Source: Owenia fusiformis
Lineage: Eukaryota > Annelida > Polychaeta > Sabellida > Oweniidae
NCBI GenBank assembly: GCA_903813345.2
Contig: CAIIXF020000004.1
Span: forward strand, 25,795,985 to 25,859,984
DNA: 64,000 nucleotides
Direction: 5' to 3'
A program made the translations under genes and the position numbers. This document shows, piece after piece, positions 5,955 through 40,536 of the stretch (position 1 is the first letter of the stretch; every line of letters begins with the position of its first letter). The notes below the pieces were generated by a model. It did no database searches. It was not told the DNA's origin and saw nothing but the letters and a program-made list of their open reading frames with translations.

Positions 5955-5956
5955 AA

Positions 5957-8690
5957 TACCCATTATAAAACTTACGTAACCCAATGCGCCAAAAACACAT
6001 AACAACCAGATTCAACCAGACAAAGAACCACAATTCCGACTGCGATGTCAAACTGCTACAACACAATCGAGCACAACCCAATTATAAACCAACACAATAC
6101 AGCCAACAAGATAAACACAACTAGGCTTAACCAAATACTCAATTAATTATACTCGATTAAATCAAACAATCAAAACACAATCTATGAAACTGTGATATCA
6201 GTATATCCAATTAAGCTTCTCTAAATAGAGACAACGATCAACCGGGCAACCACACAACACAATCGTTGACCACCCGAAATATACTCCCCCCCTTCCCGAT
6301 CAGCATAAGGTTTCTGCTGAACATATCCTGGACCACCAACAATGAGGAACGATATAGAAGTACAGATTCTAACCGTTTTTGAAGTTCCGTCTACTTCATT
6401 AAAGTAAGGTCGTCTGAACTATTTGTTCGTTAATATGTTTATTTTCTGAAATATATTAGTTATGATCACTCAATCACTCGATTAAAGGTATGCTATGAAA
6501 ACTATTTTTAATGTTTTTAACTGATGCATTCACTGCATTATTTTCTTGCACTTTGGAGATATTTTCAGATTCTTTCGAAATTGCGTCTTGGAATATCTGC
6601 TTGAGAGATGTTTCTCTGTAAACACAAATTTCTATCAACAATTCACAAACTCTGGTGGTACATTGTATTCTCGAATAACATATCGTTAAGAATGTTCGAG
6701 CTTTGTGACGGACCCGATGCAGAAAACGTTATCCTTCATTTTAAGGGGGGTTTTTACCACACATGGCGCAGGAACACTGCCGAGCACTCACAACTAATCC
6801 CATGAAAGACATGCTTCGAAATCTGTCCTTAATTGTACAATGCCCCACTTTATTAATTTGAACTAAAAATGATGAGATCTGATTACGTGCGATCGTTTCT
6901 TTATGTCATTTGATTTAATCCTGGCTGCCTGTGTTATTCCGCCAAGGTTAAAAAGCGAGGGACTAAATGAATAAATTGTATACAGCTTCATTCAAACCAA
7001 AAATCCAAACCAGAGGCGTTTTTAAATCCCGACTAGATTATGTTCCTTGGTACAAAATTATCATATGAAGCTTAACGTATGACATTCAGGACACCTGTTT
7101 AAAATAGAAAACATCTTACAGAATGAGAAAAGCCTACATAATCTATTTCGTAACATTACGTCAAAGTAACTATAGAAATAGTTGTGAAACAATAAATACA
7201 AGTGTTTAATTTCAGTAGCACATTCGCCTGCGCAAAAGCAACCTTTAGCCCCTTCTATTGGGCTACGTGGTAACGCCTTTCATGTTTGAATTGTAAAGAG
7301 AAAAAAATATTTCTAGGGCTGCAGATGTCCAATTCCTCACTTTTCTAAGTTTTGCCATTTACAATAAGTAGGAAATTGCAACAAATCATGTAAAGTACAG
7401 AATATGCATCCATCCGAAGTTCTAACAAAAATATAAGTTAATAAATAGAAAATTGAATTTAACTTTATTGAACACAAAATTGGTATCTTCTTCGAAAATA
7501 TTGGGACAGTTCGTAGGTGCAGAAAATAAAGGAACCCGTTTTGGAGTTGAGGCTGCCAAACATATAGAGGGATGTATGATATTGGAAAATAATGTATCCT
7601 TTTAAAAACAAATGTTAAAATAAATTATAGAAAAGGTGTCCATTCGCCAGTACTTTTTTCAAAATACCCGTTCATTTGTAATTGTCTGTCTTTCATCGGT
7701 TTGCCCCTCTTGATTTTATCAGGACCGCCCGCGTCAGTGGGTTATCTTCACTGGAACCAGACTATATTCTTGTCCGACGCATGAGAAAAATGATAATATC
7801 AATACTTTTGCAAATGCGGCGTTCCCCTTTTGCTTTTGCAAATGTTGAAAATTGAATGTGAATTGTAACCCCGGGAGTGTAACATTGCTCAGAGGGACTC
7901 GATCCCTTAAAACAATTGGACCACAATTTCATTCGTACCTTATTCGCAGAATCGATGGTACAGCTGTAGTAACACCAAGTAGTAACACTATGTTATTTCT
8001 AAATGATAAATGTCAAATATTACATTGCTTTTGCGAGACCTCTTCGGGGACCTCATCAACTTTGAATAAATGTTTCATTTTTCCCCCTTGGAGCCCCTGG
8101 GTTTGATACCAATCAGAATACATTGTACATCTTCTAAATTACCGCTAGTGACAAATTGAATGATTGTATTTTGATTTTCACTTTACAAATGTAACATACA
8201 ATCCTGAGGTTACAATAAAGACATATAAAACTGTTTTATATTTCTGTACACAAAGACAATGGGATATGATGTAGTTTCGTGTTACCAGGTTTATCAATCC
8301 TATAGTCACTTCATATATAAAAACGTATTTCTCATTTATCAATCGCCAAACTATTGCTGGGGTGTACATATAATTTTGATTGCTGTTAGCTAACCGCGGG
8401 ACGCACAAATTAGCTCGATCACAATTTCTTTGATAATGAATTCAGCTGTATGTCAAAACTAATTAGGTGCTTTCCCAAGTAGAAATTCACCAATCCGAAA
8501 ACGTACATATTTGAAGAAAGATATGCATGATGGGATTGAAAAGGATGCCGTTTGTTGATTAAACTACTCACCTATAGTAACATTCCCGGGGAAAATCCTC
8601 CCGGGGACAGATTAATGTTCCCTCTATTGACCAAACTTGGTACTATACTCCACTCCACCTTTTGTAAATAAGGTCCACATATATATATAT
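5957..8690 (+). mobile_element. CCCGGGG-family large TIR element, copy I (right arm only)
   Basis: From about 6000 rightward this matches the right arm of copy II (20450-23236) and the inverted right arm of copy III (31603-37805). Shared landmarks are 'GATATCAGTATATCC' near 6195, the stretch around 6760-6830, and the terminus 8563-8685. The terminus carries two CCCGGGG boxes (8585 and 8601), 'TCTATTGACCAAACTTGG' and 'CTCCACCTTTTG'. The left arm is absent, cut off near the MITE at 5505-5954. Short frames inside (for example 6608-6805 and 7852-8106) do not resemble known proteins and are not conserved as frames between copies. The element therefore looks non-autonomous. Confidence 0.6.
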
Positions 8691-9254
8691 TATAAAAGCA
8701 TAACTTCTAAATTATATAACATAATATTACATAATATGACGTAGCAATGGTTGTGATTACGTAATAAAAATTACCTTGATGGTAATTAATCTTTATAAGG
8801 CAGTTATGAAAGCGGTTGGGAACAAACTAAAGTTGCTGTATAAGTTTGGCTGAAAACTTATATTAAAAGCTCTCTCACATCACATTTTCGATGTAACCAT
8901 GGTCTTGATGTAGACAGTATTCAATAGATTGTATAGCACTTGCCTGTATCATGTGATAGATACTTTGCGAAACCTTACGAAAAGATAACTCTATAAGAAG
9001 TATGAAAACTATGAGGGTATATTCTTCATGGTATATACAAGATAAACAATAACTTCATTTGTATACAATACCTACTTAAATAAGATAAGAAATAAAGATA
9101 TTAGTACTACTATATTAATCACACACTTCAAAATCACAAAATACATCACACGAATGTACACCAAAGTTAATGAATAAATGAGAAATAACTTAATCAATTA
9201 TTCTAAAGGAACAACTCGAAAGGTAGATACTTCTCAAGCAGATATTCAAGGAAC
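8691..9254. promoter_or_regulatory. 5' flank of the secreted propeller gene, promoter not resolved
   Basis: This AT-rich segment separates the terminus of copy I from the start codon at 9255. Several TATA-like runs occur (for example near 9020-9045), but none is convincingly placed. No reading frame is present. If the gene is active, its core promoter must lie here or inside the transposon end. Confidence 0.3.
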
Positions 9255-11054
9255 ATGAACAAAATGAAGACGATTTTTTGCATATTCGTTTGCATTACTG
9301 CATTCAATGCATCTGTTTATGCTTCATCGGTTAAAGTGCTAAGAGTACCAGATGCAAACAATGTATATGATAGAGTTGATCCAATGACGTCAAAAGGCTC
9401 GGTGCATTATTTAGGGACTTTTAACACAACGGAAGAGTGTGAAAAAGAATGTATTAAACAGGCAGAAAGATGTTGGTCATATACTTATTACTCTCTAAAG
9501 TTTACAGGTATGGTTTGAACTGTATTTTTCACTTTGGTACGAGTTAATCTGATTTAATTTGAGACTTTTGGAAGGTGTAATATATACATGTAGCATCCCT
9601 TTTAAATCACAGAATTTACGAAATTAAAGGTTACAACATTTGGTTTTACAACCTTAGAGTGGAACAAACACTTCAAAGTATGCAAATAAATAAAATTCTT
9701 TGAAAAGGTCATGTTTATTATAACTGTTAAATTGATATTCACATATTTTATCAATGCAATATGTACACTATTTTAATTATTATGGTTCTTACATGTAAGT
9801 ATAAGGAATATTCGAAATTAATTTAATTTCGTATATATATACTTTTTTAGAAATCACTTTAGATTGAGTTGACTAGGGACCAAGGGTTTAGCAATACTAT
9901 AATGTTTTCTAGGATACAATGGACAATGCTTTGGGAGAATGGAAGACCTCCAGTGGTCACCTATGAAGCAAGAAGATATCGACTCGGGACGAATCCTATG
10001 GCCGTGTAGAAGCAACATGGACTGTAGTCTGAATGGTGAATGCCTGGATGGGATGTGTAAGTGTGACCCGGCATGGATGTTACATAACTGTGATGTGTTA
10101 AATCTACTCCCAGCAAATAAAAACACGGGGTACAAACAAATGGATGATGGTGCTCCGACTTCAAGCTGGGGCGGTCCTGTCGTACGTGATCCTGTTGATG
10201 GTACATATCACATGTTTCCTGCCGAAATGACTAGACATTGTGGTATAAATTCTTGGATAGTGAACAGTCGTATTGTACATGCTATGTCTGAAACGCCGAC
10301 GGGGAAATATAAACGCATTGAAGAGCAGCAACCACCCTTTGCTCATGAGCCAGATGTCATCAATGGGCCCAGAGGAGAGGCGATCATGTACTGGTCTGCT
10401 ATGAAGCATAAGAACAATGATACACTTTGTAACTGTTCTGATGGATCTACCCCTCCCAGTTGTCAACCCGGAGTGATTACCTTCACAACGTACATGAGCA
10501 TGGCTCCACGCCCTAGGGGACCCTGGTCTAAGCCTGTTGTGATCTTTCCTACAGCTCCAGGTGATAACAACCTTGCGATGGTTATCCTCAAAAATGGAAC
10601 TCTGGTTGGGTTTAGCAGAACATGGGGGCCGAGAGGATCTAGGATACACCTGTTAAGGGCTGAAAGCTATCTTGATCCAAGCACTTACAAGCAAAATCCT
10701 GAAGAGCTCTGGCCTTTCCTTCCAGCTCCAGGGACCGAAGACCCATTTGTGTACATTGACAAAAGGGGAAATTTCCATGCGATATTTCACAACAAGTATC
10801 CAAGTAACGTACAGGAAAGTGTTGGAGGACATGCTTTTAGCCCTGATGGTATAAACTGGCAATATGGTGGTAGGGCTTTTGGAAATAAGGTCCAGTTTAC
10901 GGATGGCACTGAATTTGAATTCACGCGTCGTGAACGCCCACATTTTGTATTTGATAAAGATGGGGTCACTCCACTTGCTTTAACAAGTGGAGCCCAATAT
11001 GGGGGCAAATATAATGATGCCTGTTACACTCTTTTACAACCAGTAAACCACTAA
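9255..11054 (+). CDS. Secreted PAN/apple + EGF-like + five-bladed beta-propeller protein (glycosyl-hydrolase-43-like fold), two exons
   Basis: Exons 9255-9507 and 9913-11054 join in frame (donor CAG|GTATGG, acceptor TTTTCTAG|G, phase 1) to give 464 aa. Residues 1-24 are a signal peptide (basic start, then IFCIFVCITAF). Residues ~30-105 form a PAN/apple-like module with Cys in 'TEECEKECIKQAERCW' and, across the splice, 'GQCFGRMEDLQW'. Residues ~116-146 are EGF-like, with six Cys between 'CRSNMDC' and 'HNCDVL'. From ~155 to the end, repeated blade signatures ('GPVVRDPVDGTYHMF', 'AHEPDV', 'TEDPFVYIDKRG', 'RPHFVFDKDG') suggest a five-bladed propeller as in GH43/GH32/GH117-like proteins. The catalytic acids cannot be assigned with certainty. 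The inferred role is extracellular binding or hydrolysis of glycans. Both ends of the frame are complete, with stop TAA at 11052-11054. A candidate AATAAA lies at 11521-11526. The gene stands alone between inward-facing transposon termini. I am confident it is a real gene but not of its substrate. Confidence 0.82.
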
Positions 11055-11654
11055 TAATGTGTTAGTGTTTGTAAAAAGATATATTAATTGAATATTATCC
11101 TCCAATTGCAAGGCTATGGAACACATTCATCCTTCACGAGGGTATGAGATAGAAAATATTCTGGATCTTGGACCCCTGCTATTAAAGGATCGGTTTAATG
11201 TGAATGACTGGTTTAATATAGTATAGTATATAATTATATATAGTAGTATATATGTATTTTTGCAAAACGTTTTTTAACAATGCACTAATTTATATATAAA
11301 GCTATCTGAAATTGTCAGGTACTTGAGTATAACTGCAAAAAGATACCCGCTATGTAAGGCAAACAGAAACTTAAAAAAATCATATCATTGTTTTAACAAT
11401 AAGAGCAATTGAGAATTATCTACCATTAATGTCATATTGATAAAATGTAGGCCCTTTCAATAGCTCGATTCCAGTTTTTTACACTAATACATTGTAGTGT
11501 ATATATAAATAAGAGATAATAATAAACAATGCCTTATCAAAGGAGTGGTATCGATATGGTAAACTTTTTGAACACGCGTTTCTCTTAAACCAGCCATCAA
11601 AACATTCTGAAGATTTAATGATTATTTTTTGGATGGTAACATTATAATTTGAAT
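11055..11654. other. 3' flank of the propeller gene
   Basis: AT-rich, no coding frame. AATAAA at 11521-11526 is the only well-formed polyadenylation hexamer I noted, 467 bp past the stop codon. The segment ends in an (AT)n run that abuts the left terminus of transposon copy II. Confidence 0.35.
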
Positions 11655-11980
11655 TATATATATATATATATGAGTTAGTTATTTTCAAAAGGTGGAGTGG
11701 AGTAGTAGTACCTGGTTTAGTCAATAGAGGGAATAGTTATCTGTCCCCGGGAAAATTTCCCCGGGAATTGTTACTCCAACTGAGTAATTCAGTCACTAAA
11801 TTGGCTTACACTATGAAACAATTTCAATCCCAGCATTTTTTTGTATTATGCATGCGTTCTATGTGCAGCATTGGATAGTTTATACCAACACGTGTCACTC
11901 GTCGGGAGGCGTGTACGTTGATAAGTTGCACTTTCAATGTTGCAATTATTTGTCCTTTTTAAATTAACAACGTTGACGAC

Positions 11981-12166
11981 ACTGGCGGATCCAGATGAAA
12001 ATTTACGGCCCGTGTTTTGAACATTTGACCTAAAAAGGCCAAATTATGGCCAACATGCCCATTTTTGAGGCCTTATGTAATTTTTGAGCAAAACAAATTT
12101 GGGGCCCTACAATTTTTTTCTTGGCCCAGGAAGAGGGGGGGGGGTATTGGTCTGGATCCGCCAGTG
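11981..12166. mobile_element. Short MITE with CACTGGCGGATCCAG termini
   Basis: It begins CACTGGCGGATCCAGA and ends TCTGGATCCGCCAGTG, giving perfect ~16-bp inverted termini around ~155 bp containing 'AAAAAGGCCAAATTATGGCC'. A relative lies at the equivalent place in copy III (39993-40173), so it probably entered an ancestor of both copies. Confidence 0.7.
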
Positions 12167-14450
12167 GACCATGCATGATTTCAAAAATGCTAAATTATAG
12201 CTAAATACGATCATCATGATAAACCATGACATCTAATTTCTTCTCAGAGTTGTTTCAGGTGAAATAGAAAGATGCTATGAGTATCAGAATGAAATACGAT
12301 GAACAATCGTAGAACTCCAGCTATGCCGTTAATTTCATGATTTACGCATACAGCATTTAAGTTCAATAAGTGCGCTATGAACGCATTCGTTTCTCGAAAA
12401 TATCGTCAAATACGATTCGCGGATTGACGATTTTTGTTCTCTACGATGTTGTCCACGATTTTCCAAATTGCGTTCCTCGAAGCACCTCGTCAATGAAATC
12501 GTAGTCGAAGACTTTTTGCCATGTACTTCGTGGCAGTTGCCTAGCAATATAACAAATATAGTTTTATTAGCGCAATCTTTGATTTTGATTAGTTTTACTG
12601 AAGAGATCATAGAGAAGGTGAAATAAGGGTTGATATTGTGTTGTTATTGTGTTGTCTTTTTTCAAATTGTATTGTATAACATGCCACGACAGTCTGGCAT
12701 CGCAAATCGGTAGAAGAAAGTTGAAATTAACATTCTTACTAAATGTGTTCTACAAGTGAAGGTAAAGTTGCACTTTCGACTAAGAAGGCCCCTGTCTTGG
12801 TCGCAGACGCATTTAGCGTCAAAATAAATATGGAGACAATATTTTCCAAATGCGGTTCTTTTAATTCAGAACATAGATTATGTTAGGCAATTTCTTTACA
12901 AAATAGTGTCTTCGGGACACCTAGGAAAACTCCGTCTAACACTACATAGACCTTATTCATCAGCTAAGTCGTGATCGACACAACCTTCTCTCTCGAGCGT
13001 TAGATAAAGAATCACCCCCTATGATCGCATAGAATGAACGGAGGAAGTGATGCCGGAATTTCTGCAAAATTCAACAAATCTGGAAGATTTATTTTTAAGG
13101 AATGTTTACGATTGAATTGCAAAATGAATAGGCGCACGGTGTAGTAAAATGTGCTAGGTATTCTAGGATTTTTTGTTTGAAATGATACGCTTCTGAGATA
13201 TGAGATATAAAAGGGCATATATCGTTACCAACGTGTAAAAGTCAATGTTTTTGCTATAAATCACACAACAATGGTCTACACGACCTGTAATAAATAATTG
13301 TAAGGAACGTTATTTTCACAAAACTTAAATGTCATTTGTGAATACGGTGGTATGATCTTCCATTGTGTGTTTAATTTCATATGGAGAGCACGCCCCCCCC
13401 CATCTTGCTTCAGCAAGCTTCGGACCTACATGTATCCTCACGTAGTGATTGAGCGTGCGAACCGACGATACGCGCCCCCCCCGTCCTTAACATTTCGAAG
13501 CCCAATACTCGAAAACCCATGATTAGTGTGAAACCGAATTCTACGGAACACAATACTCTAGAAAGATAAATCAATTAAACTTTGTGAGAATGACGTATAC
13601 AGTTTACATAGCGTCCCTAAGGCGGGGATGGAGAAGGAGTGGCTTTCCACGGCAGGAAAGGACAATTTTACAATGGCGATTCCTAATGAAGTAACACAGC
13701 GCATATTAATTAATTTTGTTTATTTTCCTTAAGTTAAAGTACTCAAAAACAGTTAAAAGATCAGTAAAGCATGTAGTGAAAATAAGAAAGAAAGAAAATA
13801 TACATTTACGCGGAACTTCAATCTCCTTTATGGCATAGTTTAATGAAACATTTAGAAACTAAAAAAACAAGTCTAACGTATAGAACTTTAAAAAGAAATC
13901 ACGAAATATTTTCCTCAGACATACAGTTTGGACAATTTGAAATAGATAGCAACATAATACAGCGCATCATTGAGAAAGTATACCGTCCTCTTTCTTGTTC
14001 ATACGAGATTTGAATCAGACGTTTGGATAGCGATATTCATTGAACTGACATGACAGATAGATGATTTTACGGACGCTTTCATGATTTTAATTTAGCTACA
14101 CATACAGCAAACATTTGTTTAAAATAAGATTTAAGAAAAAGGATGGACAAGCCTTCTAATGGTGTCTTGATAATGTGGTCAACTATTTTATAGAATAACA
14201 AAAAATCTACTAAATGTTGTCAATCTGCGAAAATATTGCTAAAGGTTTGTTTTAGTTCTGGTAAAATGTAGATAAAGGTATTTCTAATAATTAGCTTAAT
14301 TTCTTAGAGAATGCCTACTAAGTTTCGGATTAATGGATGGACCCCATTAATCTGTCTTTTTAGAAAAATAAAGTTTACATTTTAATAATCTGCCAAGATT
14401 TATTGAAAGTCCCAATATATCTGTTAATAATTATGACCATCGAAGGGTAT
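12167..14450. other. Left arm of copy II, no gene
   Basis: No supported coding region. Parts match copy III inverted, for example 13550-13680 against 39580-39680, sharing 'GAGAATGACGTATACAGTTT' and the 'CTTTCCACGGCAGG' type stretch. About 1 kb (roughly 12390-13370) has no counterpart in copy III and may be a further insertion, or a deletion there. Poly-C runs occur at 13393 and 13477. Confidence 0.4.
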
Positions 14451-14499
14451 GCTTTGATCAAAACTGGTCTTTCTGAGTTCATTTTAAAAACTTTTACCA

Positions 14500-14970
14500 A
14501 ATACAGAACACAATCAGACACTACCAACCATCTCATCCGACTAGGCACAATCTGTTACTCAACCAACACTACATGATAACAACAGAACACAGCCCATGAT
14601 AGAATTAACATAACGCAACGGGGCACAATCTGACACGAAACCAATACCAGACAAAAAACACATAGGGATAACGACTGTCAAACTGATACAACACAATCAG
14701 GCATAACCAATAAAATACAACCAATTCTCATCGAACAAATTTGAGATAACACCAGTCACATAGTGGACACAGTCAAATACCTTACCGGACTGGGCACAAC
14801 CTGCCACCCGATCAATATAATACAATCACAACACAACCCATTATAAAACTTACGTTTCACGAACCAAAACCTCAACCTATCATTTAACTAAATCATTTGG
14901 GCACTACCTGACACAAACCTACCACAACATAACCAAGATCAACCAAATACTAAATTTATTATACTCGATT
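14500..14970. repeat. Central 'ACACAATC' region of the CCCGGGG family
   Basis: Words of the form AACACAATCAGGCACAACC recur many times. Similar sequence lies at 6000-6190 (copy I) and 16255-16330. It is low in G on the plus strand and has no open frame. Confidence 0.45.
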
Positions 14971-15822
14971 AAACTAGAAAATGGCAACTCCACGGAGTAG
15001 CAAATCCAAACGAACACTATATAAATGATCAATCTATACAGTCACAATGTAATATTTACCATCTACTCCTTTCCTTCAATAAAATATTTTAGATCATTGT
15101 AGTAAAATGTAACCATACTTTCAAGATAACTCTAAGTAATGGCGAATTTCTGCTCTAGTCAGCCATTTTGATTTTCAGAGGCACAAATCAAGAAAACAAT
15201 GCCATGATTGTGATCTACTCTGAAATTCCTTCAATTTGAGTATAATAAAGCCATACTTTTAAGAGATCAGAAAATAATTGCGAAATCCCGCAATAAAGCG
15301 GCCATTTTGAATTTTTTTGAGGCCCGAATCAGAAAAACGCTACAATATTTGCAATCTACTCTAAATTGCCTTTCATTTGAGTATAATAAAGCTATACTTC
15401 AAAAACATCTCAAAATTAATGCAAATTCCTGTTTTCCCAACCCCCCATTTACGGCCCCTAGGGTCGGGTAAAAAACGGGATATATGTGAAATATATAGAT
15501 GTTAATATACTACCAAAATTTCAAATAATATTATTTATTCCATAGTTAGCATGATATTCATTGGATAACATGTGAAAATAAAAACGATATTTTTCTAATC
15601 AGTGGTAAAATATGATATTTTTGACAAATTTTCACTTAACCATAGCATACGGTTTTTTAGCCATGACATACGACGTCGTATGCGATGGTTAATGGATTTT
15701 TGCTACTTCAGACTCAAAACGAGGCTAAGTGTCAACATCGCCGGATCGTTTTGAAAATTCGAATTAAATGACTTAGTTTCCGACAATTCTGATGATGACT
15801 TAAACTATGGAATAAAAAGAAC

Positions 15823-15957
15823 ATCCTATGATTTACTCGTGATATGATTTTAATCCACTCATGGATATTGATATCTGCACTCTCTCGCTACGCTCGCTCG
15901 TGCAGATATCATATCCATTCGTGGATAAAAATCATATCACTCATAAATCATAGGATA
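15823..15957. mobile_element. Hairpin (fold-back) element, ~135 bp
   Basis: ATCCTATGATTTACTCGTGA at the left folds onto TCATAAATCATAGGAT at the right. The inner arms contain 'CCACTCATGGATAT' and the loop 'CTCGCTACGCTCGC'. A related hairpin is at 22054-22175. It is flanked by TTTTAT/ATTTA-type sequence. Confidence 0.65.
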
Positions 15958-16139
15958 TCCTCTATTTATTATTTTGGTTTAAAATGAAAAACATAAGATT
16001 TTTGTGCAAAATTCGTACCATCTTAAAACTGGCGGCCATCTTGAAAAAATTGTTTTGCGTAAAACTATTCACCTAAACTATTCACCAATATACATCTTTC
16101 CACCAAATGGGCGAAAATCTGTTGACTAGTATCCGAGTT

Positions 16140-16216
16140 ATCTTCCGGACAGACGGACGGACGGACAGACAGACGGACGAACTGACTGACTGACTGCCGG
16201 ACTGACGGACGAAGGG
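16140..16216. repeat. Low-complexity (ACGG)n/(ACTG)n tract
   Basis: Successive CAGACGGACGGACGGACAGA, then ACTGACTGACTG units. The minus-strand frame over it is only a reading of the repeat. Confidence 0.7.
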
Positions 16217-16439
16217 CTTCACTGTATCCATACTGAACTTCGTCCGTGGGGATAATCAAACAATCAAAACACAATCAGGCACAACCAATGAAACATTACG
16301 AAACGGTGATATCAGTATATCCAACTAACATTCACCATAAAGCTCCTGATGAACATATCCTAGACCACAACCAATGCAATGAATGAGCTACACTCCCCTC
16401 CATAAGTTTGGCAACCTTAGCCCCCCCCCCTATTGAAGT

Positions 16440-17084
16440 ACGTGTCAAAGCCTCTTTACGTTTGAATTTTTATTCACTTAACCTGCGTTAAAATAACTTA
16501 ATATAATAATATAATATTGATCGAAACGTAACTTGACTTTATTTTCAATACCCTCAAATTTTCCTTATTTTTTCCTCGATTACAATATGTCGAAAATTGA
16601 TGATAAAGATGAATTTTTGAAAATCGTCATTCCGATGTAAACCAATGGGAAATGGTAGGTTCGGGGCAAATCAGAAATTAGGATCTATTCAGTAAAAGAT
16701 TCAGCAAAAATATTCTTATATAGAAAATTGAATTGTCTAACTTTTTTTGTACACTAAGTGTTTAGCTTACATAATGAATACTAAAGTAACAGAGCTTCAA
16801 AGTCAAATTTTTTGAAAATCATTTTTCGCCTTCTGTGTTATTTCAATGGGAGTGTTTTTTTGAAAAATAATTTTGACTTAAAAGATTATAAGTTTGCTGA
16901 TCCTGAAGAAAGGTATCAATTTTTTGTTAAATAAAGTTAGCAAATTCAATTGGCTACCTAACTTGTATTTTTTCAAGGACTCGCATCGGAAGTGATGTAT
17001 ATTTTGTCATATGACCTGCGGCAAACCTACCATTTTCCATTGGTGAACATGGGAATGTCGATTTTCTAGACGAGTTTCTCAATC
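16440..17084. other. Inserted or diverged segment, no gene
   Basis: AT-rich, with several 'TTTTGAAAAT' words and 'ACCAATGGGAAATGGTAG' near 16640, partly mirrored at 17030-17043 ('CTACCATTTTCCATTGGTG'). This suggests a fold-back arm, but no coding frame. Confidence 0.35.
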
Positions 17085-18006
17085 ATCGTATATACGTGCA
17101 ATTAAGACACGATCGATAATGTTAAAAATGTTCTTAGTTTAGATCTAGCATCATCAAGAAGCGAGAAATTCACGGGTTTAGTTCCTCGCTTTTGATGCAA
17201 AAACACCACACCCAAGCTGCAAAAATACTTTTCCATATTATGTCCAGTGATGCAAAAATACCAATTAATGGCAGATTGTTGAACCCCATTATGGGCATTT
17301 ACAGACTATAAATTTATCAATTGTATAATTTCAAAGAACATAAATCCTTAGGAACAGATTTGAAACGCTATTGTTAACTAGGGCAACCCAGTCAATAAAT
17401 ATCATTTAACACCTTTCAGGCGATCATGATTCGGAGGACATGAGATTTCTGAGAAGGATACTAGATGAAAAGATGGGGAGCTTTATATAAATCACACCAC
17501 TTGGTCTGAAATGTTCGCGCCTCATTGAGAAAAAATGAGGACCGGGGTAACAGGAATGACGGTCCCCTACTCTAGGGATGATTTCCCCCCGAACCCTATC
17601 CCCCAGGAACGCCACTCCTACGCACGAATATACATATTATTGAGACCGGAGTTTCTAAGGGTATTGGTCCAGGGGAGACAATAATTGTCAAAACACAGTT
17701 CAGAGGAGCCATATTTATTACTTCTAAGGGGTTAAAATATAGATAAATCCCCAAAAAACATTGTTCATTGTTTTCGACTTATTGCGTCCAATTCTGACAG
17801 TTGGTTGTTCTGTTGGTTGTCCTGTTGATTTCTTCAATATATTGGTGAAATTGTGCTTTTCATTTGGCCTCCAGATATATCTAAGGTACATATGATGTTT
17901 TATGAGCAATTATATTTCGACAGTACTGATTAACCAGAATAGAAATCTGGACGACTGGATCTCTTTAACAGAATGTGAGATATTTTCAAAATATTGTACC
18001 GCTTAA

Positions 18007-19842
18007 CCTTGGTCGCACATTTTATACGGCTAGCCTGTATGTAATCTACGGTCGGATTACGGTATCCGTATATCATATCCAGTAACTTACAGCCTGTAGA
18101 GTCGCCGTACCGCAAAAATTATAACTCGGACTTATAAATGTATTAATTTCTATGATTATCGTAGAAGTGAAAACGCCGTAGCCGTACGTTTTGCCAATGG
18201 TTTTATGACTGCCCTGGGGTTTTATGAGTTACAATTGACAATTACAGTGACGTGTCGCAAAAAGGTCGCGCACGCATTGTTACTCATTTTCGCTTTTTAA
18301 CACCACAGAATGTGACGTTTTTTGAGAAAAATGTACACATATGGAAATCCTTTCGTCCTCCACATTTGCCTCTATATCTCAAAATATTTAAGGCGAATAA
18401 CTCTGATATCGTATATGTATTAAGAATGGGATAGGAGCATCATAAAACACGAATCAATTGATATTTTAGGTGAAATAAATATACGTGTTGCTGTGCTTGA
18501 AAATAGGCGAATGGCGTAAATTAGCCCTATTTTAATGAATTTTGAAAACCTTTTCGTCCTCCACTTTTCCTCATACAACAGAAAACACATACTTTTGCGA
18601 AAAAAAATCAACTATTTATTTATAAATTAGTGTTTAAGAGCAAAATAATCATGTATGATTTATTAAAAATTGATCTTGTATTTTTTGTTTAATGTACACC
18701 TGAAAAGTTGAAGGTAACAAAAAATGAGCAAAAAAAGGTCGCTGTCAACAGATTCTATTTTTCAAACTTTATGACGTCACAATATGGGACGCTTACTTAA
18801 ATTCATCCTTTGAAAAAAAACTTCCATCTACCTTCATCAAGACGAAAAATAAGTATGATAGTCATATATTATTTGAGTTATGAGCGTTTAAAGACGAAAA
18901 ATAATTCAAAATGTAACGTGTCAACAGGGGATATTTGCCAGGTGTTTTGGTAAAAAACTCGTTTTTAAAAAGAACGCGCAAGAATCGTGAACGGAGTGTA
19001 GTTGACCTAAAAACTTCATCGAAACAGCTTTAAAATGATATGTAACTTTAATTAGAATATTATATTATAATCCGGGGAATCAAAGTTACATTCACGCGAT
19101 ACCCTTAAAAAACAAATGCGCCACCTTTTTGCGACACGTCAGTAGTATCGCCATACGTGCCCCCCTCGGCCGCCTTGTGTTTGCCTTGGCATTTGTCAAG
19201 AACGACGCCCGCTGCGAAGACGCCCTATGGTGACTGTCAGTCATAATTTAAAAGGTCGTACAGCACCCATAAATTTTCTATTTTCACAAAAACAAAATAC
19301 GACTTTCCAAGCAAATGTGACTGTTAAAATATCTGAACATAAAATTTTCACGGCAGACGTACATGTATAATGGCTATTGGGCGTAAAAGGTAAAACCGTG
19401 CGGTCGCCGTTGCAAATGTGACTACGGTAGTTTTACGGTTTATGTATGGTGTATCAAGATTTTAAAGGCCGTAGAGTCCCCGTAGAAAGTCAGAGTTAAC
19501 CTTTTCTATTCACTGTACAAATAAACAAGCCGCTGACGGACCGTGGAAAGGTCCCGTGGTGGCCGTTGGGCCTAGAGTCGACTTGCGGCTTATCCTAGAG
19601 TTTATGGTTTACCCCCGCGACCGCCTTAATTGTACAATGTTTTTTGTCAAGAAAAACTACGCCCTCCATTAAGACGCCCTTCACTGATGGTGCATTACCA
19701 TTCAAAGGCCATGCGAAATCAAAATACTCCGCATGGCTACAGTAGCAAAACTGCAGTAGGAGTAATTGCTAAAGTATATGCCCGCATAAATTCCAAGGCG
19801 ACCATAGGAATGTACGGTCACCGTAGAAAATATGACCTAGGC
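18007..19842. mobile_element. TIR element related to the 5505-5954 MITE, interrupted
   Basis: The left end CCTTGGTCGCACATTTTATA mirrors the right end TATGACCTAGG preceded by CCGTAGAAAA. Internal GCCGTACGG/CTACGG words and 'CAAATGTGACT' stretches (19314, 19414) link it to the ACACCCCAGTCACATTT MITE family. The 892-bp element at 18249-19140 is inserted inside it. Without that insertion it is about 940 bp. The short frame 19630-19857 looks incidental. Confidence 0.5.
18249..19140. mobile_element. TIR element with GACGTGTCGCAAAAAGG ends and 3-bp target duplication
   Basis: The left end GACGTGTCGCAAAAAGGTCG is mirrored by CCTTTTTGCGACACGTC at the right. The trinucleotide AGT flanks it on both sides (18246-18248 and 19141-19143), the likely target-site duplication. 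It is 892 bp with no transposase frame. A truncated relative in the opposite orientation lies at 37807-38413. It sits inside the older element 18007-19842. Confidence 0.75.
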
Positions 19843-21681: not shown

Positions 21682-21792
21682 AAACCATCGAATATCACTT
21701 TTGAAACCATCGAATATCACTTTTTGAAAGGTGATATTCGATGGTTTTAAAAGTGATATTCGATGGTTTAAAAAGTGATATTCGATGGTTTT
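21682..21792. repeat. Five copies of a GATATTCGATGGTTT word, two inverted and three direct
   Basis: AAACCATCGAATATCACTTT occurs twice, followed by three copies of its complement AAGTGATATTCGATGGTTT, so the block can fold into a hairpin. Spacing is 21-25 bp. No coding function. Confidence 0.75.
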
Positions 21793-24008: not shown

Positions 24009-24045
24009 CTGGAAAATTAAATAATGGTTGAAAATTTTCATGGTC

Positions 24046-28031: not shown

Positions 28032-28062
28032 CACAAATGTTACCTGACTTGAGTTGTAAAAA

Positions 28063-31305: not shown

Positions 31306-31309
31306 TAAC

Positions 31310-31600: not shown

Positions 31601-33044
31601 ATATGTGGACCTTATTTACAAAAGGTGGAGTGGAGTGTAGTACCAAGTCTGGTCAATAGAGGGAACATTAATCTGTCCCCGGGAGGATTTTCCCCGGGAA
31701 TGTTACTATAGGTGAGTAGTGTAATCAACAAACGGCGCCCTTTTCAATCCCATCATGCATGTCTTACTTCAAATATATACGTTTTCTGATTGGTGAATTT
31801 CTACTTGGGAATGCACCTAATTAGTTTTGGCATGCAGCTCAATTCGATATCAAGGAAATTGTAATCGAGCTAATTTGTGCGTCCCTCGGTTAGCTAACAG
31901 CAATCAAGACCATCTGTACACCCCAGCAATATTTTGGTTGATGGATAAATGAGAAATACGTTTTTATATGTGAAGTGACTATAGGATTGATAAACCTGGT
32001 AACATGAAACTGCATCATATTCAATTGTCTTTGTAACCAGACATATAAAACAGTTTTATATGTCTTTGTTGTAACATGAGGAATGTATGTAATATTTGTA
32101 AAGTGAAAATTAAAATACAATCATTCAATTTGTCACTCGCGGTAATTTAGAAGATGTACAATGTATTATGATTGGTCTCAAACCCAGGGGCTCCAAGGGG
32201 GAAAATGAAACTTTTATTCAAAGTTGATGAGGTCCCCGATGAGGTCTCGCAAAAACAATGTAATATTTGACATTTATCCTTTAGAAATAACGTAGTGTCA
32301 CTACTTGGTGTTACTATAGCTGTACCATCGATTCTGTGAATAAGGTACGAATGAAATTGTGGTCCAATGCATTATTTTAAGGGATTGAGTACCTCTGAGC
32401 AATGTTACACTCCCAGGGTTGCAATCGCATTCAATTTTCAACATTTGCAAAAGCAAAAAGGGAACGCCGCATATGATATATCTCATGCGTCGGACAAGAA
32501 TATCGTCTGGTTCCAGTGAAGATGACCCATTGACGTATAATCTACGGGGCGGTCCAGATAAAATCAAGAGGGGCAAACCGATGAAAAAAATTATTGGCCT
32601 CTGTACTAGATCCGATCATTGGGTTATTAGCCGAACGGACAATTACAAATGAACGGGTATTTTGAAAAAAGTACAGGCGAATGGACACCTTTTCTATAAT
32701 TTATTTTAACATTTGTTTTTAAAAAGGATACATTATTTTTCAATATCATACATCCCTCTATAGGTTTGACAGCCTTAACTCCCCAACGTTTTTTTTTATT
32801 TTCTGCACCTCCGAACTGTCCCAATATTCTCGAAGAAGATATCAATTTTGTGTTCCATAAAGTTAAATTCAATTTTCTCTTTATTAACTTATATTTTGTT
32901 AGAACTTCGGATGGATGCATATTCTGTAGGTTACATGATTTGTGGCAATTTCCCACTTATTGTAAATGGCGAAAACTTAGAAAAGTGAGGAATTGGACAT
33001 CTGCAGCCCTACATATATTTTTTTCTCTTCACAATTCAAACATG

Positions 33045-34220
33045 TGTAGCGACCCTGGGTTGGCTACCCTTGCAAATGCCAACCTTATTCCCAGTCTCGC
33101 TACTTCCCTTCCGCTCCAGAGCGCGAATACTTCCGCTGCAGGGTCAGGGTAATAGTTGCTTGAGCTATATAGTTTTTGTATCGGGACAACTATTTTGCAA
33201 GGGTTTTTTAATGTAAAGCATTTTGTGAGGTAACTACTTTTTGTAAGGGTTTATCTCGCGAGAAGTTTCGCGAGAAGAGAGTTGGCGCCATATTTTTCCC
33301 CACGAGGAAGTTTTGATTTAAATTGCGATGTTTTAGATTCGTTTTTCGACACTTGATCGGGCCTGATCAATCGTCATGGCAGCCAGGGAGATGGAGAGAG
33401 TGGCCGCAAGATTGAGGTTGTATTTTTATATTTGAACTCCACTGCAGTGCTGAGCATACTTGTAGAAATATTGTGAATCATTTTCAGTTTATTTTGTCTT
33501 TGACTTTTGAGAGTCATCTGAGTTTGACATTGGATTTGATTGGGTTATTTGTAACAGTTGATCTACTGTGATTGATTTTCTTTGAGAGAATTATGTAATT
33601 TTTGGCTGGAAGATCTGGCCTAGTTTTGATATGCTCAGCGCGCAGGTGAGATTTTTCACAGCGCCACCTTTTGACTATCGCTTTACTTAAAGCTCGATGT
33701 TGTTTTAATTGTAAGCGCTCATATAGCCGCCATCTTACTTAAGTCATTTGTAATCTTTCTGCCATGTAATTTCCTATGATTTCATTTGATAGATAAAACT
33801 GATGTAAAACCAAATCTCATTATTTATTTACAATTAAACTTTAAAACTTTACTTGATTTGTTGTGTTAATTGTTTGTAGTCATTGATTGATGGTTTAGAT
33901 GGAATAACAGTAAAATGGCCCTATAATTAACTTCTGATATCTTCCTAACTTCATTCATATTTGTTCAATTAGTGTTTCCAACTTTTGTGTCTATTCATAG
34001 ATGGCAGCACTTTACAGATAGTCAAGCAATCAATCTCTTTCAGCTCAAATCCGATTCACTACGTGCTTTGACCGGTCAGCTTACCACGCTACCATTTGTT
34101 TGCTCGTTCGGTCCAGTTTGTTTGTTTGTTTGTACGGGTTGCTTTGTTGTAGGATTGGTTAATTGATTGATTGGGCAGCCCGTACGTGGCAGTTTCGGGA
34201 TTAAGACCGGAGCTGTTACA
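33045..34220 (+). repeat. 5' LTR (1176 bp)
   Basis: It starts TGTAGCGACC and ends CTGTTACA. It contains the inverted word CTCGCGAGAAGTTTCGCGAG at ~33253 and a short initiating frame at 33375 (ATGGCAGCCAGGGAG...) with a possible splice donor (GAG|GTTGTA) near 33417. The 64-codon frame at 33972-34166 recurs identically in the other LTR and is not a gene. Confidence 0.9.
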
Positions 34221-35696
34221 TTGGTTAGTCGCGGCGGGATTTTTGAGTTGTTTGTTTGATTGATTGATTGTTGTTTAAGTATTTGTGAAATTCTGCAGCA
34301 AGTTTCTCGTGCGCGGTTGAGATTTGATGACCTACTCTAGTCCAGTCCTGGTAGTAATTGACTGTGATAGACTGATACTACTGATAGTGAGCTTTACTGA
34401 TTGTGCTAGAGGAGCTGGCGACTTGTCATCGAGCGCCACGTCTGACGTTTGCTCCCTTTCAAGACATGGCATATTTCTCTGAAATTATGCAGAAACACCA
34501 GATTATGAATTCACTCACTGATATGACAACTGATACTGCGTTTTGTTTTCCAGGTTGACATGAAGGCCCTACTGTGGTTGAACCGGCTCGTATTACTACA
34601 CAGGCCCCGAGTTCCTGCGTTGCAGTAAGCCAGACTGCGGCAGCTTATCATGTTGTGACATCTACTTGGCAGGTCCTGGCCGGGCCTCAGGATGGTTGTG
34701 ATCTCGATGCGCCTGTCAGCAGTTGTGATTATGGCGGCAAACAGATTAGGCCTACTTGGAGTCTGCAATGATTCACACCTGAGTGCGCCTGCCAGGAATG
34801 GCGCAAAGCAGCATGTAGACACGACTTATGACTCCCTCGATTGTGACAATATATTATTCCAGCCAGTGACTTTTACTGATCGTGTCCTATTACCGATTAT
34901 ATGAATTATGAATACTGATTAGAAGAGACTACCGAGGAATAGACTTATACTACTACCGAAATATTACATGGATCATGCTAATGATGAACCTTATGCTGAT
35001 TATCCCGATAAAATGGACTGTGTTCCATTGGATTAATCGTCAACGTGATATATTCCGAAAAATGGATTTTCGTTTCCATTGAATTATCATTGTGGTCATT
35101 AGTGGTAGCTGATCTATATGTTCCTGACAAAATAATTGAGCCAGATTGGGCCATTGGCTTATGATTAATATACATTGTGAAGGACAGTGAATGTTACTTG
35201 CACTGCCTCTATTTATTTGTACCTGTGCATCATAGCTGCATATAGCCATATAGCTGTAAAGGTATGGTTTATGAGCTCTGATTGGGCATCCATGGCTGAA
35301 TATCTACTACATTTATATCTGTGCTTCAACATCAAGACAGTATTGTGTTTGACTGATTTGAGCTGTTCCGGGATGGAGTGCACGCCTCCCAGGATTTGAA
35401 CTGTAGAACGGGACTTCACCACTGTCAGCATGTGATATTTTAATGTTATGAACACTGAGTTTGAGAATTGTATATTTTATGCTGAGAAAAAGACATTGTA
35501 AATGTTGAATTTTCTAGGTTATTTTTGAATGAAACTTTGTACAATGGTTTGTTATTGGTCTGGGCGGTCCTCATATTCAGCATTTGGTGGTATTTGATTT
35601 TGGAGAATATGCCGTCCAGGCCAAGCAGATGACCATTTTTGAGGGTGAATAATTTTGTACATTTTGAGGTTAAAGGCTTTTCTCAGAGGGGAGGTA
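34221..35696 (+). other. Interior of the LTR element, non-coding
   Basis: It holds the putative primer-binding site (34222-34239) and polypurine tract (35685-35696). The short frames between (all under about 105 codons, on both strands) overlap one another and have no capsid, protease or polymerase motif. Confidence 0.75.
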
Positions 35697-36872
35697 TGTA
35701 GCGACCCTGGGTTGGCTACCCTTGCAAATGCCAACCTTATTCCCAGTCTCGCTACTTCCCTTCCGCTCCAGAGCGCGAATACTTCCGCTGCAGGGTCAGG
35801 GTAATAGTTGCTTGAGCTATATAGTTTTTGTATCGGGACAACTATTTTGCAAGGGTTTTTTAATGTAAAGCATTTTGTGAGGTAACTACTTTTTGTAAGG
35901 GTTTATCTCGCGAGAAGTTTCGCGAGAAGAGAGTTGGCGCCATATTTTTCCCCACGAGGAAGTTTTGATTTAAATTGCGATGTTTTAGATTCGTTTTTCG
36001 ACACTTGATCGGGCCTGATCAATCGTCATGGCAGCCAGGGAGATGGAGAGAGTGGCCGCAAGATTGAGGTTGTATTTTTATATTTGAACTCCACTGCAGT
36101 GCTGAGCATACTTGTAGAAATATTGTGAATCATTTTCAGTTTATTTTGTCTTTGACTTTTGAGAGTCATCTGAGTTTGACATTGGATTTGATTGGGTTAT
36201 TTGTAACAGTTGATCTACTGTGATTGATTTTCTTTGAGAGAATTATGTAATTTTTGGCTGGAAGATCTGGCCTAGTTTTGATATGCTCAGCGCGCAGGTG
36301 AGATTTTTCACAGCGCCACCTTTTGACTATCGCTTTACTTAAAGCTCGATGTTGTTTTAATTGTAAGCGCTCATATAGCCGCCATCTTACTTAAGTCATT
36401 TGTAATCTTTCTGCCATGTAATTTCCTATGATTTCATTTGATAGATAAAACTGATGTAAAACCAAATCTCATTATTTATTTACAATTAAACTTTAAAACT
36501 TTACTTGATTTGTTGTGTTGATTGTTTGTAGTCATTGATTGATGGTTTAGATGGAATAACAGTAAAATGGCCCTATAATTAACTTCTGATATCTTCCTAA
36601 CTTCATTCATATTTGTTCAATTAGTGTTTCCAACTTTTGTGTCTATTCATAGATGGCAGCACTTTACAGATAGTCAAGCAATCAATCTCTTTCAGCTCAA
36701 ATCCGATTCACTACGTGCTTTGACCGGTCAGCTTACCACGCTACCATTTGTTTGCTCGTTCGGTCCAGTTTGTTTGTTTGTTTGTACGGGTTGCTTTGTT
36801 GTAGGATTGGTTAATTGATTGATTGGGCAGCCCGTACGTGGCAGTTTCGGGATTAAGACCGGAGCTGTTACA
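35697..36872 (+). repeat. 3' LTR (1176 bp)
   Basis: Same length and termini as the 5' LTR; one substitution noticed (36520). It is followed by the CATG target duplication. Confidence 0.9.
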
Positions 36873-37806
36873 CATGGAAGGCTTTAACACGTAGTCCAAT
36901 AGAAGGGGCTAAAGGTTGCTAATTTTACTGAAATGAAACGCCCGTATTTATTGTTTCACAACTATTTGTAGTTACTTTGACGTAATGTTACGAAATAGAG
37001 GAGGTTGGCTATTCTCATTCTGTAAGATGTTTTCTATTTTTAAACACATGTCATGAATGTCATACGTTAAGTTGCATATTATAATTATGTACCAAGGAAC
37101 ACAATCTAGTCGGAATTTAAAAATGCCTCTGGTTTGTAATTTTTGGTTTGAATGAAGCTGTAATTTATTCATTTAGTCCCTCGCTTTTTAACCTTGGCGG
37201 ATAACACCCACAGGCAGCCATGATTAAATCAAATGACAAAACGAAATGATCGTGCGTAATCAGATTTCGACGCATGTCTTTCATGGGAGTAGTTGTGAGT
37301 GTTCGGCAGTGTTCGTCATGTGTGGTAAAAACTCCCTTTAAAATGGAGGATAACGTTTTCTGCATCGGGTCCGTCACAAAGCTCGAACATTTTCAGCGAT
37401 GTGTTATTCGAGAATACAATGTACCATCAGATTTTGTGAATTGTTGATAGAAATTTGTGTTTACAGAGAAACACCTCTCCAGCAGAAATTCCAAGACGCA
37501 ATTTCGCAAGAAAATATTTTTAAAATGCAAGAAAAAGTTAAAAAACATTAAAAATAGTTTTCATAGCATACCGTTAATCCAGTGATTGAGTGATCATAAC
37601 TAATATATTTAAGAAAATCAACATATTAACGAACAAAGAGTTCAGACGACCTTACTTGTTAAGTAGACAGAACTTCAAAAAACCGTTATAATCTGTACTT
37701 CTAAAACGTTCCGTGGGAGGAGTATGTATCGGTTGGTCCACGATTGTGTTTGTGGTTGCCCGGTTGTGGTTGTCTCTATTTAGAGAAGCTTATAGTTGGA
37801 TATACT

Positions 37807-38413
37807 GACACGTCGCAAAAAGCTGGCACACTTGTGTTTTTAGGGTATCGCATGAATGTAACTTTAATTCTTCGGAATATAAGATAATATTCTAATCAAA
37901 ATTATATATCATTTTAAAGCTGCTTTAATGAAGTTTTCAAATGAAGTACACTTCTTTCACAATTCTTGCGCGTTCTTTTTTTTAAAAAAGAGTTTTTTAC
38001 CCGAAAATCTTCCAAATATCCGCTGTCGACACGTTACATTTTGAATACTTTTTCGTTTTAAAACGCGCATAACTCAAACAATATTTGACTATTATACTTT
38101 ATTTTCATCTTGATAAAGGTAGATGGAAGTGTTATTTCAAAGGATGAATTCTACTTAGCGTCCCATATTGTGACGTCATATAGTTTGAAAAATAGAATCT
38201 GTTGACAGCGACCTTCTTTGCTCATTTTTTGTTACCTTCAACTTTTCAAGTGTACATTAAACAAAAAATACGAGACCACTTTGTTATATATCATACATGA
38301 TTATTTTGCTCAAAAAATCTAGTTTATTGATAAATAGCTGATTTTGTTCGCAAACGTATGTGTTTTCTGTTGTATGTGGAAAAGTGGAGGACGAAAGGTT
38401 TTCAAAATTCATT
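37807..38413 (-). mobile_element. Truncated relative of the 18249-19140 TIR element
   Basis: It begins GACACGTCGCAAAAAGCTGG and follows the complement of 19140 back to about 18535. Shared landmarks are the 'AATTCTTGCGCGTTC' stretch, 'CATATTGTGACGTCATA' and 'AAAAGTGGAGGACGAAAGGT'. The far end is missing. It interrupts copy III beside the 'GGATATACTG' word. Confidence 0.65.
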
Positions 38414-38900
38414 CATGACTCTGCACGCAGGGTAATTCGTAAACGTAATGAAATACGAATACGGGTACGTTTTAGCACCCAAGAGGAGAACCCCAAGAGC
38501 TTAGACGATACCAGACATAATTGCGTCTTGCCACCTTCGTATGACATTGTTTAAATTCTCCAGAAATGAACATAATATTATTCGAATCATACAAACATTC
38601 TGAGGCCGCCATTTTTTGTGGATTTTGACCATCAGAAACAAATTTACATGATAATCGTATGTCATCTCTGAACTCTGGGATTATCCCCGGGGGTTTCACT
38701 CCAATATCCCCCTCTTTAGCTAACCACTTGTGCGAAACCTCTCCATTATATCTATGATTCTCGTTCATATGCCGGGACTCCTTAAGAGTCGGTGGCGATT
38801 TAAATATCGCGGCTATTACCAGGTTACTCAGAAGAACTAAGAAAGACTATTTTGATGAACGCATGTCCTTTAAATGACATAGATTTCGAAGCTATTTAGA
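38414..38900. other. Unassigned segment inside copy III
   Basis: The minus-strand frame 38472-38768 (98 codons, begins 'MNENHRYNGEVSHKW') has ordinary amino-acid composition but no recognisable domain, and I find no splice context that supports it. The sequence is not seen in the other copies. Confidence 0.3.
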
Positions 38901-39992
38901 AACTCCTCTAACCCCTAGGCTGTGTTAATGGATTCGTTCTGATTCGGCGGCGTTTTAAATTACGCGGTTATTACCAGGTTACTTAGATGTAGAACTACAA
39001 CTAAGAACGATCAGTTTTGATGAACGCAGATATTTGCTATATTGGAACTTTTAATAAATCTTGGCAGGTTATTATTTAATGTCACTTTTTGTAATGAACA
39101 AAATGCTTGCTGAATGCGTAGCTATTTAAAATCATGAAAGCGTCCTTAGTATTCATATATCGCATATATCACTTCCCAAACGACTGATTCAAATCTGGTA
39201 TGAACAAGATTAAAGAGGACGGTACGTTTTCCAATATGATGCGCTGTAAGTTGCTGTATATATTTCATATTGTCCAAACTGTATGTTGTTAGTCTGGGGA
39301 AAACATTTCGTCATTGTCTTTTAGAGTTCCATATACGTTACACTTAGTTTTTTAGTTTCTAAATGTATCATTCAACTATGCCATAAAGGAGATTGAAGAT
39401 CCGTGTAAATGTATATTTCCTAAATGTATTTTCATTGCATGTTTTACAGATCTTTCACCGTGGATCTTTTAACTGTTTTTGAATATTTTTAACTTAATGA
39501 AAATATATACGGTAACAAAATTAATTAAATACGCGCTGTGTTTTGAACTTTTTTTGTAAAATTGTCCTTCCCTGCCGTGGGAAGCCACGCCTTCTCCATC
39601 TCCACCTCCGGGACGCTAAACAAACTGTATACGTCATTCTCATAAAGTTTAATTGATTTATCTTTCTAGAGTATTGGATTCCGTATTATTTGATTTCGGT
39701 GTAATAATGGGTTTTCGAGTATTGGGGTTCGAACAAGGGCAGCAATACTTCATATTATATTATGTTGAGGACGGGGGTTCTTCCAGATGAAACACACAAT
39801 GGAAGAGCATACTGCCGTATTCTGCATTAACCTATATATATATGTGCTTGAACTCTGCTCCAAGTCAAATAAACGAATGCGTTCATAGCGTACTAATTGT
39901 ACTTATATACGTAAATCATGAAATTAACGGGCATATCAGGAGTTCTACGATTGTTCACCGTATTTAAGTATACGCCTATTTTTGTTATCATC

Positions 39993-40173
39993 CCACTGGT
40001 GGATCCAGATCCATCTTGCGCCCCCCCCCGCCCCCTTTTTTGTAGGAGCCCAAAAATCGTTTTGCTCGAAAGTTAAGTATGGCCTCAAAAATGATTCTAT
40101 TTGGGCATGATTTGGCATTTTAGGCCAAATTTTCCAAAAATGGGGTTTAAATTTTCATCTGGATCCGCCAGTG
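39993..40173. mobile_element. Short MITE, relative of 11981-12166
   Basis: It begins CCCACTGGTGGATCCAGATC, has a poly-C run, and ends CATCTGGATCCGCCAGTG. It occupies the equivalent position in copy III, in the orientation expected from the inversion. Confidence 0.65.
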
Positions 40174-40536
40174 TTGTCAAAGTTGTTAAATTCAAAAAGG
40201 CCAAATAATTGCGATATTGAATGTGCAACTTATCACAGTACACCTCTCCCGACGAGTGACACGTGTTGTTAACTGAATTACTCAGTTGGAGTAACAATTC
40301 CCGGGGAAACCTTCCCGGGAACAGATAACTATTCCCTCTATTGACTAAACTAGGTACTATAGTTCACTCCACCTTTTGAAAATAACTAACTCATATATAT
40401 ACAGGGTGACCGGAAAAAAGGAGACCATTGAAATAGACTAGTGACATCAATGAAATTTTGCATACATCAGGACAGTTCTATGGAAATTTGTTCCTGAAAG
40501 TGTCAAGCAGTCAACTGGTTCAGGAGCTATGATCAT

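What the first reader, a model, noticed from the sequence alone, without database searches (positions are those of the whole stretch)
5957..40400. Large 'CCCGGGG' TIR element family with no visible transposase
Three multi-kilobase copies share ~110-bp termini that contain paired CCCGGGG boxes, 'CTCCACCTTTTG' and 'TCTATTGAC', with a left-specific and a right-specific tip. The copies extend for about 5 kb or more without insertions, yet contain no transposase, integrase or polymerase frame. The palindromic SmaI-like boxes next to each tip could be protein-binding sites. I cannot place this family in a known superfamily.
Basis: partly seen in the sequence, partly recalled or inferred. Interest (0 to 1): 0.75.

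Follow-up and report, generated by a model that had tools for sequence, protein, structure and literature searches.

The report
Gene-carrying pair of non-coding jumping elements
These are large DNA transposons that seem to encode no protein of their own and insert at ATAT sites, and in this window two of them sit either side of a complete host gene and share one insertion site with it, which suggests that the pair carried the gene to a new chromosome.

Summary
The repeat family is real: 103 TIR ends in the 498-Mb genome form 43 inward pairs 4.1-17.0 kb apart. Ends are of A and B type with ~110-bp TIRs. A 4-bp AWWT site (36 ATAT, 1 AAAT) abuts both tips in 37 of 38 intact-tip elements checked, and a rebuilt empty site matches 40 of 40 listed places, so this is no segmental duplication. 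Six frames of two cores hold no credible domain; 21 of 43 elements were read in full and none shows a transposase. The AWWT site fits Sola2 (PMC3627910), untested by any transposase.

The surprise: copy 1, a 2,993-bp segment with an intact two-exon gene, and copy 2 occupy one site. The segment matches a contig C6 locus at 99.5%, identity ending within 4 bp of the element tips, with no element in the 4.6 kb read there. Copy 1's left outer flank joined to copy 2's right outer flank rebuilds an old repeat, contiguous in 25 of 43 listed rows. Best reading: a composite transposon that carried a whole gene between chromosomes; repair-templated fill-in is the main rival.

The parts
1..8678 (+). Copy 1 (subfamily I), part inside the window; B end at C4:25792584 (outside the window), A end at 8678
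8580..8678 (-). A-type TIR of copy 1 with two CCCGGG boxes; tip GTGGACCTTATTTACAAAAGGTGGAG, abutted by ATAT
8679..11671 (+). Gene segment between the two elements; window 8679-11675 is 99.53% identical over 2,997 bp to C6:37537644-37540635 (L087 745-3736); the match starts at the A tip and ends 4 bp into the B tip
9255..9507 (+). Exon 1 of the carried gene: signal-peptide-like start (by eye) and PAN-like domain; GT donor at 9508 (by eye)
   Evidence: (PAN_1, 21.8 bits against a cut-off of 21.4)
9913..11054 (+). Exon 2: EGF-like piece (below cut-off) and an unassigned C-terminal region; 100% amino-acid identity at C6:37538866, 88% in a paralogue at C4:21931198
11672..23225 (+). Copy 2 (subfamily II), B end at 11672, A end at 23225
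11672..11790 (+). B-type TIR of copy 2 (tip GAGTTAGTTATTTTCAAAAGGTGGAG)
23127..23225 (-). A-type TIR of copy 2; followed by ATAT and then the right half of an old dispersed repeat
23226..23355 (+). Right half of the old repeat that received the composite (query stretch used); its left half lies at C4:25792450-25792583, outside copy 1
   Evidence: 25 of 43 rows span the junction
31605..40392 (-). Copy 3 (subfamily I), A end at 31605, B end at 40392
33045..36872 (.). LTR-type insertion nested in copy 3: 1,176-bp direct repeats TGTAGC...GTTACA, 99.9% identical

Best explanation
These are non-autonomous cut-and-paste DNA transposons, most likely moved by a Sola2-type DDE transposase. SHOWN: two end types, ~110-bp TIRs with paired CCCGGG boxes, a 4-bp ATAT/AAAT site at the tips, insertion mostly into (TA)n, no recognised transposase in the elements read. 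INFERRED: the enzyme is supplied in trans and binds the TIRs. In this window two elements act together as a composite transposon. SHOWN: copy 1, gene segment and copy 2 sit in one site of one old repeat; the segment is 99.5% identical to a C6 locus where no element was found; its edges are the element tips, to within 4 bp. INFERRED: copies 1 and 2 had landed in the (TA)n arrays either side of the gene on an unsampled C6 haplotype, and transposase then used the outer B end of copy 1 and the outer A end of copy 2 to move the ~26.6-kb block, gene included, to C4.
For: Ends pair inward in 43 places. The 4-mers abutting both tips are equal in 37 of 38 intact-tip elements; the one AAAT copy has AAAT on both sides. 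Composite empty site: 25 of 43 rows span the join by about 10 bases or more on each side at 68-74%. Informal control: a MITE end joined to the same right flank gave 0 of 40 rows reaching past base 139 of 216 (the MITE may have crowded the list). Gene segment: 2,997 bp at 99.53%. No TIR is listed near C6:37.54 Mb (searches scored 40 candidates only, and one search lists 100 of 104) and none is in the 4.6 kb read there. The outer flanks match neither the gene segment nor the C6 locus. Sola2 TSDs are AWWT, including ATAT and AAAT (PMC3627910, passages).
Against: No transposase and no C6 haplotype carrying the two elements was seen. ATAT is at nearly every tip (mispaired flanks agree in 92%), so equal 4-mers at the composite's outer ends say little. 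Four tip-to-tip pairs exist without a gene between them, which leaves room for later gene fill-in. The Sola2 TIRs described in PMC3627910 are 12-21 bp, far shorter than these. Of the 43 rows, 9 match only the right half, 7 of them beginning near the join. One intact-tip element (C102) has unlike 4-mers.
Confidence: 0.55

Rival explanations
1. Copies 1 and 2 first formed a tip-to-tip tandem in the old repeat at C4. A break at the shared (TA)n, perhaps made by transposase, was repaired by copying the (TA)n-flanked gene segment from C6. The gene was filled in by templated repair, not carried.
For: Four tip-to-tip pairs are listed (C3:13136046/13136081; C10:2601690/2601787; C10:5728998/5729020; C11:1109515/1109592). 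The C6 segment has (TA)n on both sides. The one-site result fits equally well.
Against: It needs strand invasion from TA-repeat homology alone at both ends; the four tip-to-tip pairs listed contain no fill-in.
Confidence: 0.3
2. Ectopic gene conversion: a break inside one element at C4 was repaired from a locus where two elements flank the gene, using element homology and not transposition.
For: Copies 1 and 2 have the TIR variants of different subfamilies, and a mosaic copy was read (C2:30635075).
Against: It needs a gene flanked by elements at C6 as well, so it is less economical than direct composite transposition.
Confidence: 0.1
3. Same element biology, but the transposase belongs to a superfamily other than Sola2, possibly undescribed. 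(This concerns the enzyme only and is compatible with either route for the gene.)
For: No transposase was found; the ~110-bp TIRs are longer than the Sola2 TIRs in PMC3627910; other superfamilies also make 4-bp TSDs (recalled).
Against: The AWWT site matches what is published for Sola2.
Confidence: 0.45
4. Segmental duplication with variable ends, not a mobile element.
For: Clustering: four elements within 86 kb on C4.
Against: Constant ends, a constant 4-bp site, rebuilt empty sites, and 43 pairs spread over 11 of the 12 large contigs (none on C8) and one small one.
Confidence: 0.01

Closest known systems
Sola2 DNA transposons (Repbase superfamily Sola; PMC3627910, passages)
   Same: 4-bp AT-rich AWWT target (ATAT, AAAT); multi-kb elements; TIRs.
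   Different: No transposase seen here; ~110-bp TIRs with CCCGGG pairs against the 12-21 bp given for the Dictyostelium/Polysphondylium families; terminal letters could not be compared.
Ac/Ds macrotransposons of maize (PMC9910405, passages)
   Same: Outer ends of two nearby elements move the DNA between them (10.3 kb and 28 kb there) as one unit.
   Different: A plant hAT family with 8-bp TSD; here a 4-bp ATAT site, a genome that I take for an animal's from its PAN/EGF-type genes (inference), and a whole gene between two large contigs.
Drosophila foldback-flanked mobile segments (mentioned in PMC6431247, passage)
   Same: Host DNA between two DNA transposons is mobilised.
   Different: Foldback elements have another end structure (recalled); segments there are cytologically visible.
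KolobokP (PMC9587614, passages)
   Same: Composite-like DNA transposons in invertebrates; tandem copies.
   Different: Kolobok uses TTAA; KolobokP has long terminal direct repeats and encodes a transposase. None of these is seen here.

Membership tests
Sola2 | 4-bp AWWT target-site duplication | tested here: met
   37 of 38 intact-tip elements have equal 4-mers on both sides, 36 ATAT and 1 AAAT. ATAT being nearly universal, the AAAT copy is the most telling.
Sola2 | Sola2 DDE transposase in autonomous members | not testable with these tools
   None recognised in the 21 of 43 elements read in full; no Sola2 profile or sequence was at hand.
Sola2 | First 11 terminal bases align with a known family (Repbase rule, PMC4455052, passage) | not testable with these tools
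   Repbase is not held here.
piggyBac / Kolobok | TTAA target | tested here: not met
   0 of 38 elements have TTAA at a tip.
Tc1/mariner | TA duplication abutting the tips, transposase | tested here: not met
   The AAAT copy has no TA abutting its tips; no DDE domain in two cores.
Polinton/Maverick | 6-bp TSD, DNA polymerase B and integrase (recalled) | tested here: not met
   Ten elements share no more than 4 bp; no such domain in six frames of two cores.
Composite (macro) transposon | Two same-family elements flank non-element DNA | tested here: met
   Copies 1 and 2 around window 8679-11671.
Composite (macro) transposon | Block occupies a single insertion site | tested here: met
   Joined outer flanks contiguous in 25 of 43 rows.
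Composite (macro) transposon | Moved by transposase acting on the outer ends | tested here: inconclusive
   ATAT at both outer tips fits but is nearly universal; fill-in is not excluded.

The most novel reading that the evidence does not exclude
An animal-type genome holds a working equivalent of bacterial composite transposons: non-coding, (TA)n-targeting modules with cores of about 8 kb that cluster, land tip to tip and, in pairs, carry complete genes between chromosomes, powered by a transposase encoded elsewhere and not yet described for such elements.
Probability: 0.4. Interest if true: 0.75.

Novelty: new variant of a known kind. Interest (0 to 1): 0.6.

Why it matters
Full-length host-gene capture is called exceptionally rare for Helitrons and Pack-MULEs (PMC6431247, passage). 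Here a complete two-exon gene, with its intron and flanks, appears to have moved between chromosome-sized contigs so recently (0.5% difference) that the event may still be polymorphic. That makes composite transposition as a route to gene duplication directly testable, and it gives a concrete search target: a transposase for ~110-bp TIRs and ATAT sites.

Tried and rejected
Polinton, piggyBac/Kolobok and mariner readings were rejected on target-site length or letters and on lack of domains; Helitron and LTR readings on the TIRs and the constant 4-bp site. A tyrosine-recombinase-like ORF near a TIR-like match at C10:31964746 (L023) was first taken for an autonomous partner: Pfam gave Phage_integrase and DUF3504 below their cut-offs; it lies outside the 1.3-kb inverted-repeat unit there, which has only its own two ends as genome matches, and was dropped. 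One search, which brought that match, also had 3 hits in its reversed control among 93 forward and reverse hits, so its two odd hits alone prove nothing; the other one (C9:14521140) is backed by 76% identity over about 110 bp of TIR. Diverged or single TIRs at C9:14521140, C4:17460856, C8:24039799, C10:24644732, C1:33412568 and C1:4164475 were read for 7-10 kb; no transposase was recognised by eye. Larger copies (C5 17 kb, C11 12.3 kb, C2 11.4 kb) appear to owe their size to nested insertions or mosaic structure. One search seemed to show perfectly inverted flanks for one copy; that came from reading the same tip twice, and one search corrected it. Rfam on four elements and the window, and tRNA scans of five loci: 0 matches. 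Two broader paper searches gave 0 and 1 papers. A guess at the host species was not pursued.

Full report
Observation. The window is C4:25795985-25859984 of an unnamed 498-Mb genome in 525 contigs. CCCGGGG occurs 15 times against 0.94 expected, and CTCCACCTTTTG occurs exactly in five termini. Self-comparison shows three copies of one family. Each has a B end (tip GAGTTAGTTATTTTC) and an A end (tip GTGGACC... or GTGGAGG...), with shared sequence inside. True limits: copy 1 from C4:25792584 to window 8678, copy 2 11672-23225, copy 3 31605-40392 reversed.

Genome-wide. Pattern CAAAAGGTGGAGTGN{12,30}TCAATAGA: 94 hits, reversed control 0. A relaxed pattern gave 93 hits with 3 in its control and brought two odd matches. 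A third pattern, with up to 3 mismatches, gave 104 hits and 0 in the control; 100 are listed. From 103 ends (94 plus 9) 43 inward pairs arise, 4,108-16,989 bp between the pattern positions, with 17 ends unpaired. Of the 43, I read 21 in full (window) and 22 at their tips only. Subfamilies differ by TIR variant; the closest long matches reach 98% (L016/L017 98.4% over 8.2 kb; L001/L003 98.3% over 4.15 kb), so activity is recent. Six gaps between neighbouring elements are under 60 kb among the 42 pairs on the 12 large contigs, against a mean of 0.25 and a maximum of 3 in 5,000 random placements.

Target. 40 of the 43 pairs entered the tip count; I left out C5:27009711 (B tip not found by the script's motif), C10:5715928 (A tip cut at its tip-to-tip neighbour) and C10:5729020 (outer flank too short). 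Of the 40, 38 have standard tips, and 37 of these have the same 4-mer on both sides, 36 ATAT and 1 AAAT. Mispaired flanks agree at 92% because ATAT is so common, so the weight rests on the AAAT copy (III C1a) and on the ten copies, III C1a among them, where agreement stops at 4. The exceptions: C102 (AATA on the right), III C12e (altered tip) and copy 1, whose B tip is split by a 517-bp MITE flanked by TTA; its true tip with ATAT was found. For copy C9a the joined flanks match 40 of 40 listed places contiguously at 83-90%, among 1,889 first-look candidates: a clean insertion into the (TA)n of a common repeat.

Coding content. Six-frame Pfam scans of subfamily I (L005) and III (L016) gave only hits below the curated cut-offs, E 0.05-0.2. 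In the 15 loci no frame exceeds 140 aa. The longest frames look like nested retroelement DNA (by eye, not by a library). A 450-bp probe from three subfamily cores has a listed match in 37 of 43 pairs (40 of 96 candidates scored). Of the six without, four were read in full (copy 1, C5:27009711, C2:30635075, C11:20380800) and show no transposase; C3:19281382 and C7:10290736 were not read. A core match does not exclude coding DNA elsewhere in an unread element, so an autonomous copy is not excluded.

The gene between copies 1 and 2. Window 8679-11675 matches C6 (L087 745-3736) at 99.53% over 2,997 bp, with 9 mismatches and 1 gap; the match starts at the A tip of copy 1 and ends 4 bp into the B tip of copy 2. 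At C6 the segment has (TA)n on both sides, unrelated flanks, and no TIR in the 4.6 kb read. The gene has two exons (splice sites read by eye), a PAN-like piece just above its cut-off and EGF-like matches below theirs, 100% amino-acid identity for exon 2 at C6 and a paralogue at 88%. Solved structures gave nothing convincing.

One site. Joining copy 1's left outer flank (130 bp and ATAT) to copy 2's right outer flank gives 43 rows (40 of 62 candidates scored): 25 span the join by about 10 bases or more on each side; 2 are the site's own halves; 6 are three places split around the join; 1 ends just past the join; 9 match the right side only, 7 of these starting near the join. Neither outer flank matches the gene segment or the C6 locus. 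So copy 1 + gene + copy 2 fill one site of one old repeat, and the gene at C4 is the derived copy. An informal control, the same right flank joined to the MITE end, gave 0 of 40 rows beyond base 139, although the abundant MITE may have crowded that list.

Mechanism and standing. Composite transposition explains all of this with known chemistry (maize macrotransposons, PMC9910405, passages). Templated repair between tip-to-tip elements also fits and is kept as the main rival. The AWWT site is that of Sola2 (PMC3627910, passages); family membership stays open because transposase and terminal letters could not be tested. Paper searches listed nothing that I recognised as this family; only listings and the named passages were seen.

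Noticed in passing
C4:25792590-25793106 (L088/L015): A 517-bp MITE with TIRs and TTA on both sides sits in copy 1's B tip; abundant and young (393 first-look candidates, over half of the 40 listed at 100%).
   Followed up: partly
window 33045-36872: LTR-type element with 1,176-bp repeats 99.9% identical and only ~1.5 kb inside, no frame over 116 aa listed: looks like a young non-autonomous LTR element.
   Followed up: partly
window 40402-41368: Mariner-like element (by eye; ends CAGGGTGACCGG, TA on both sides) next to copy 3's B tip.
   Followed up: no
window 31305-31599 and 32011-32301: Inverted copy of copy 3's own subterminal DNA lies just outside its A tip (95% identity).
   Followed up: no
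window 24471-29652: Non-LTR retrotransposon-like element (by eye) with frames of 1,275 and 529 aa between copies 2 and 3.
   Followed up: no
window 41629-43260: 543-aa frame with a CCHC knuckle, gag-like by eye.
   Followed up: no
window 59814-62533: Tandem array, 447-bp period, 6.1 copies; parts recur at 24042, 29859 and 30252.
   Followed up: no
L023 5289-6450 (C10): Tyrosine-recombinase-like frames (Phage_integrase and DUF3504, below cut-off): a possible Crypton-type element.
   Followed up: partly
L082 3-4287 (C11): Long frames of 528, 398 and 383 aa, non-LTR type by eye, nested in a family I element.
   Followed up: no
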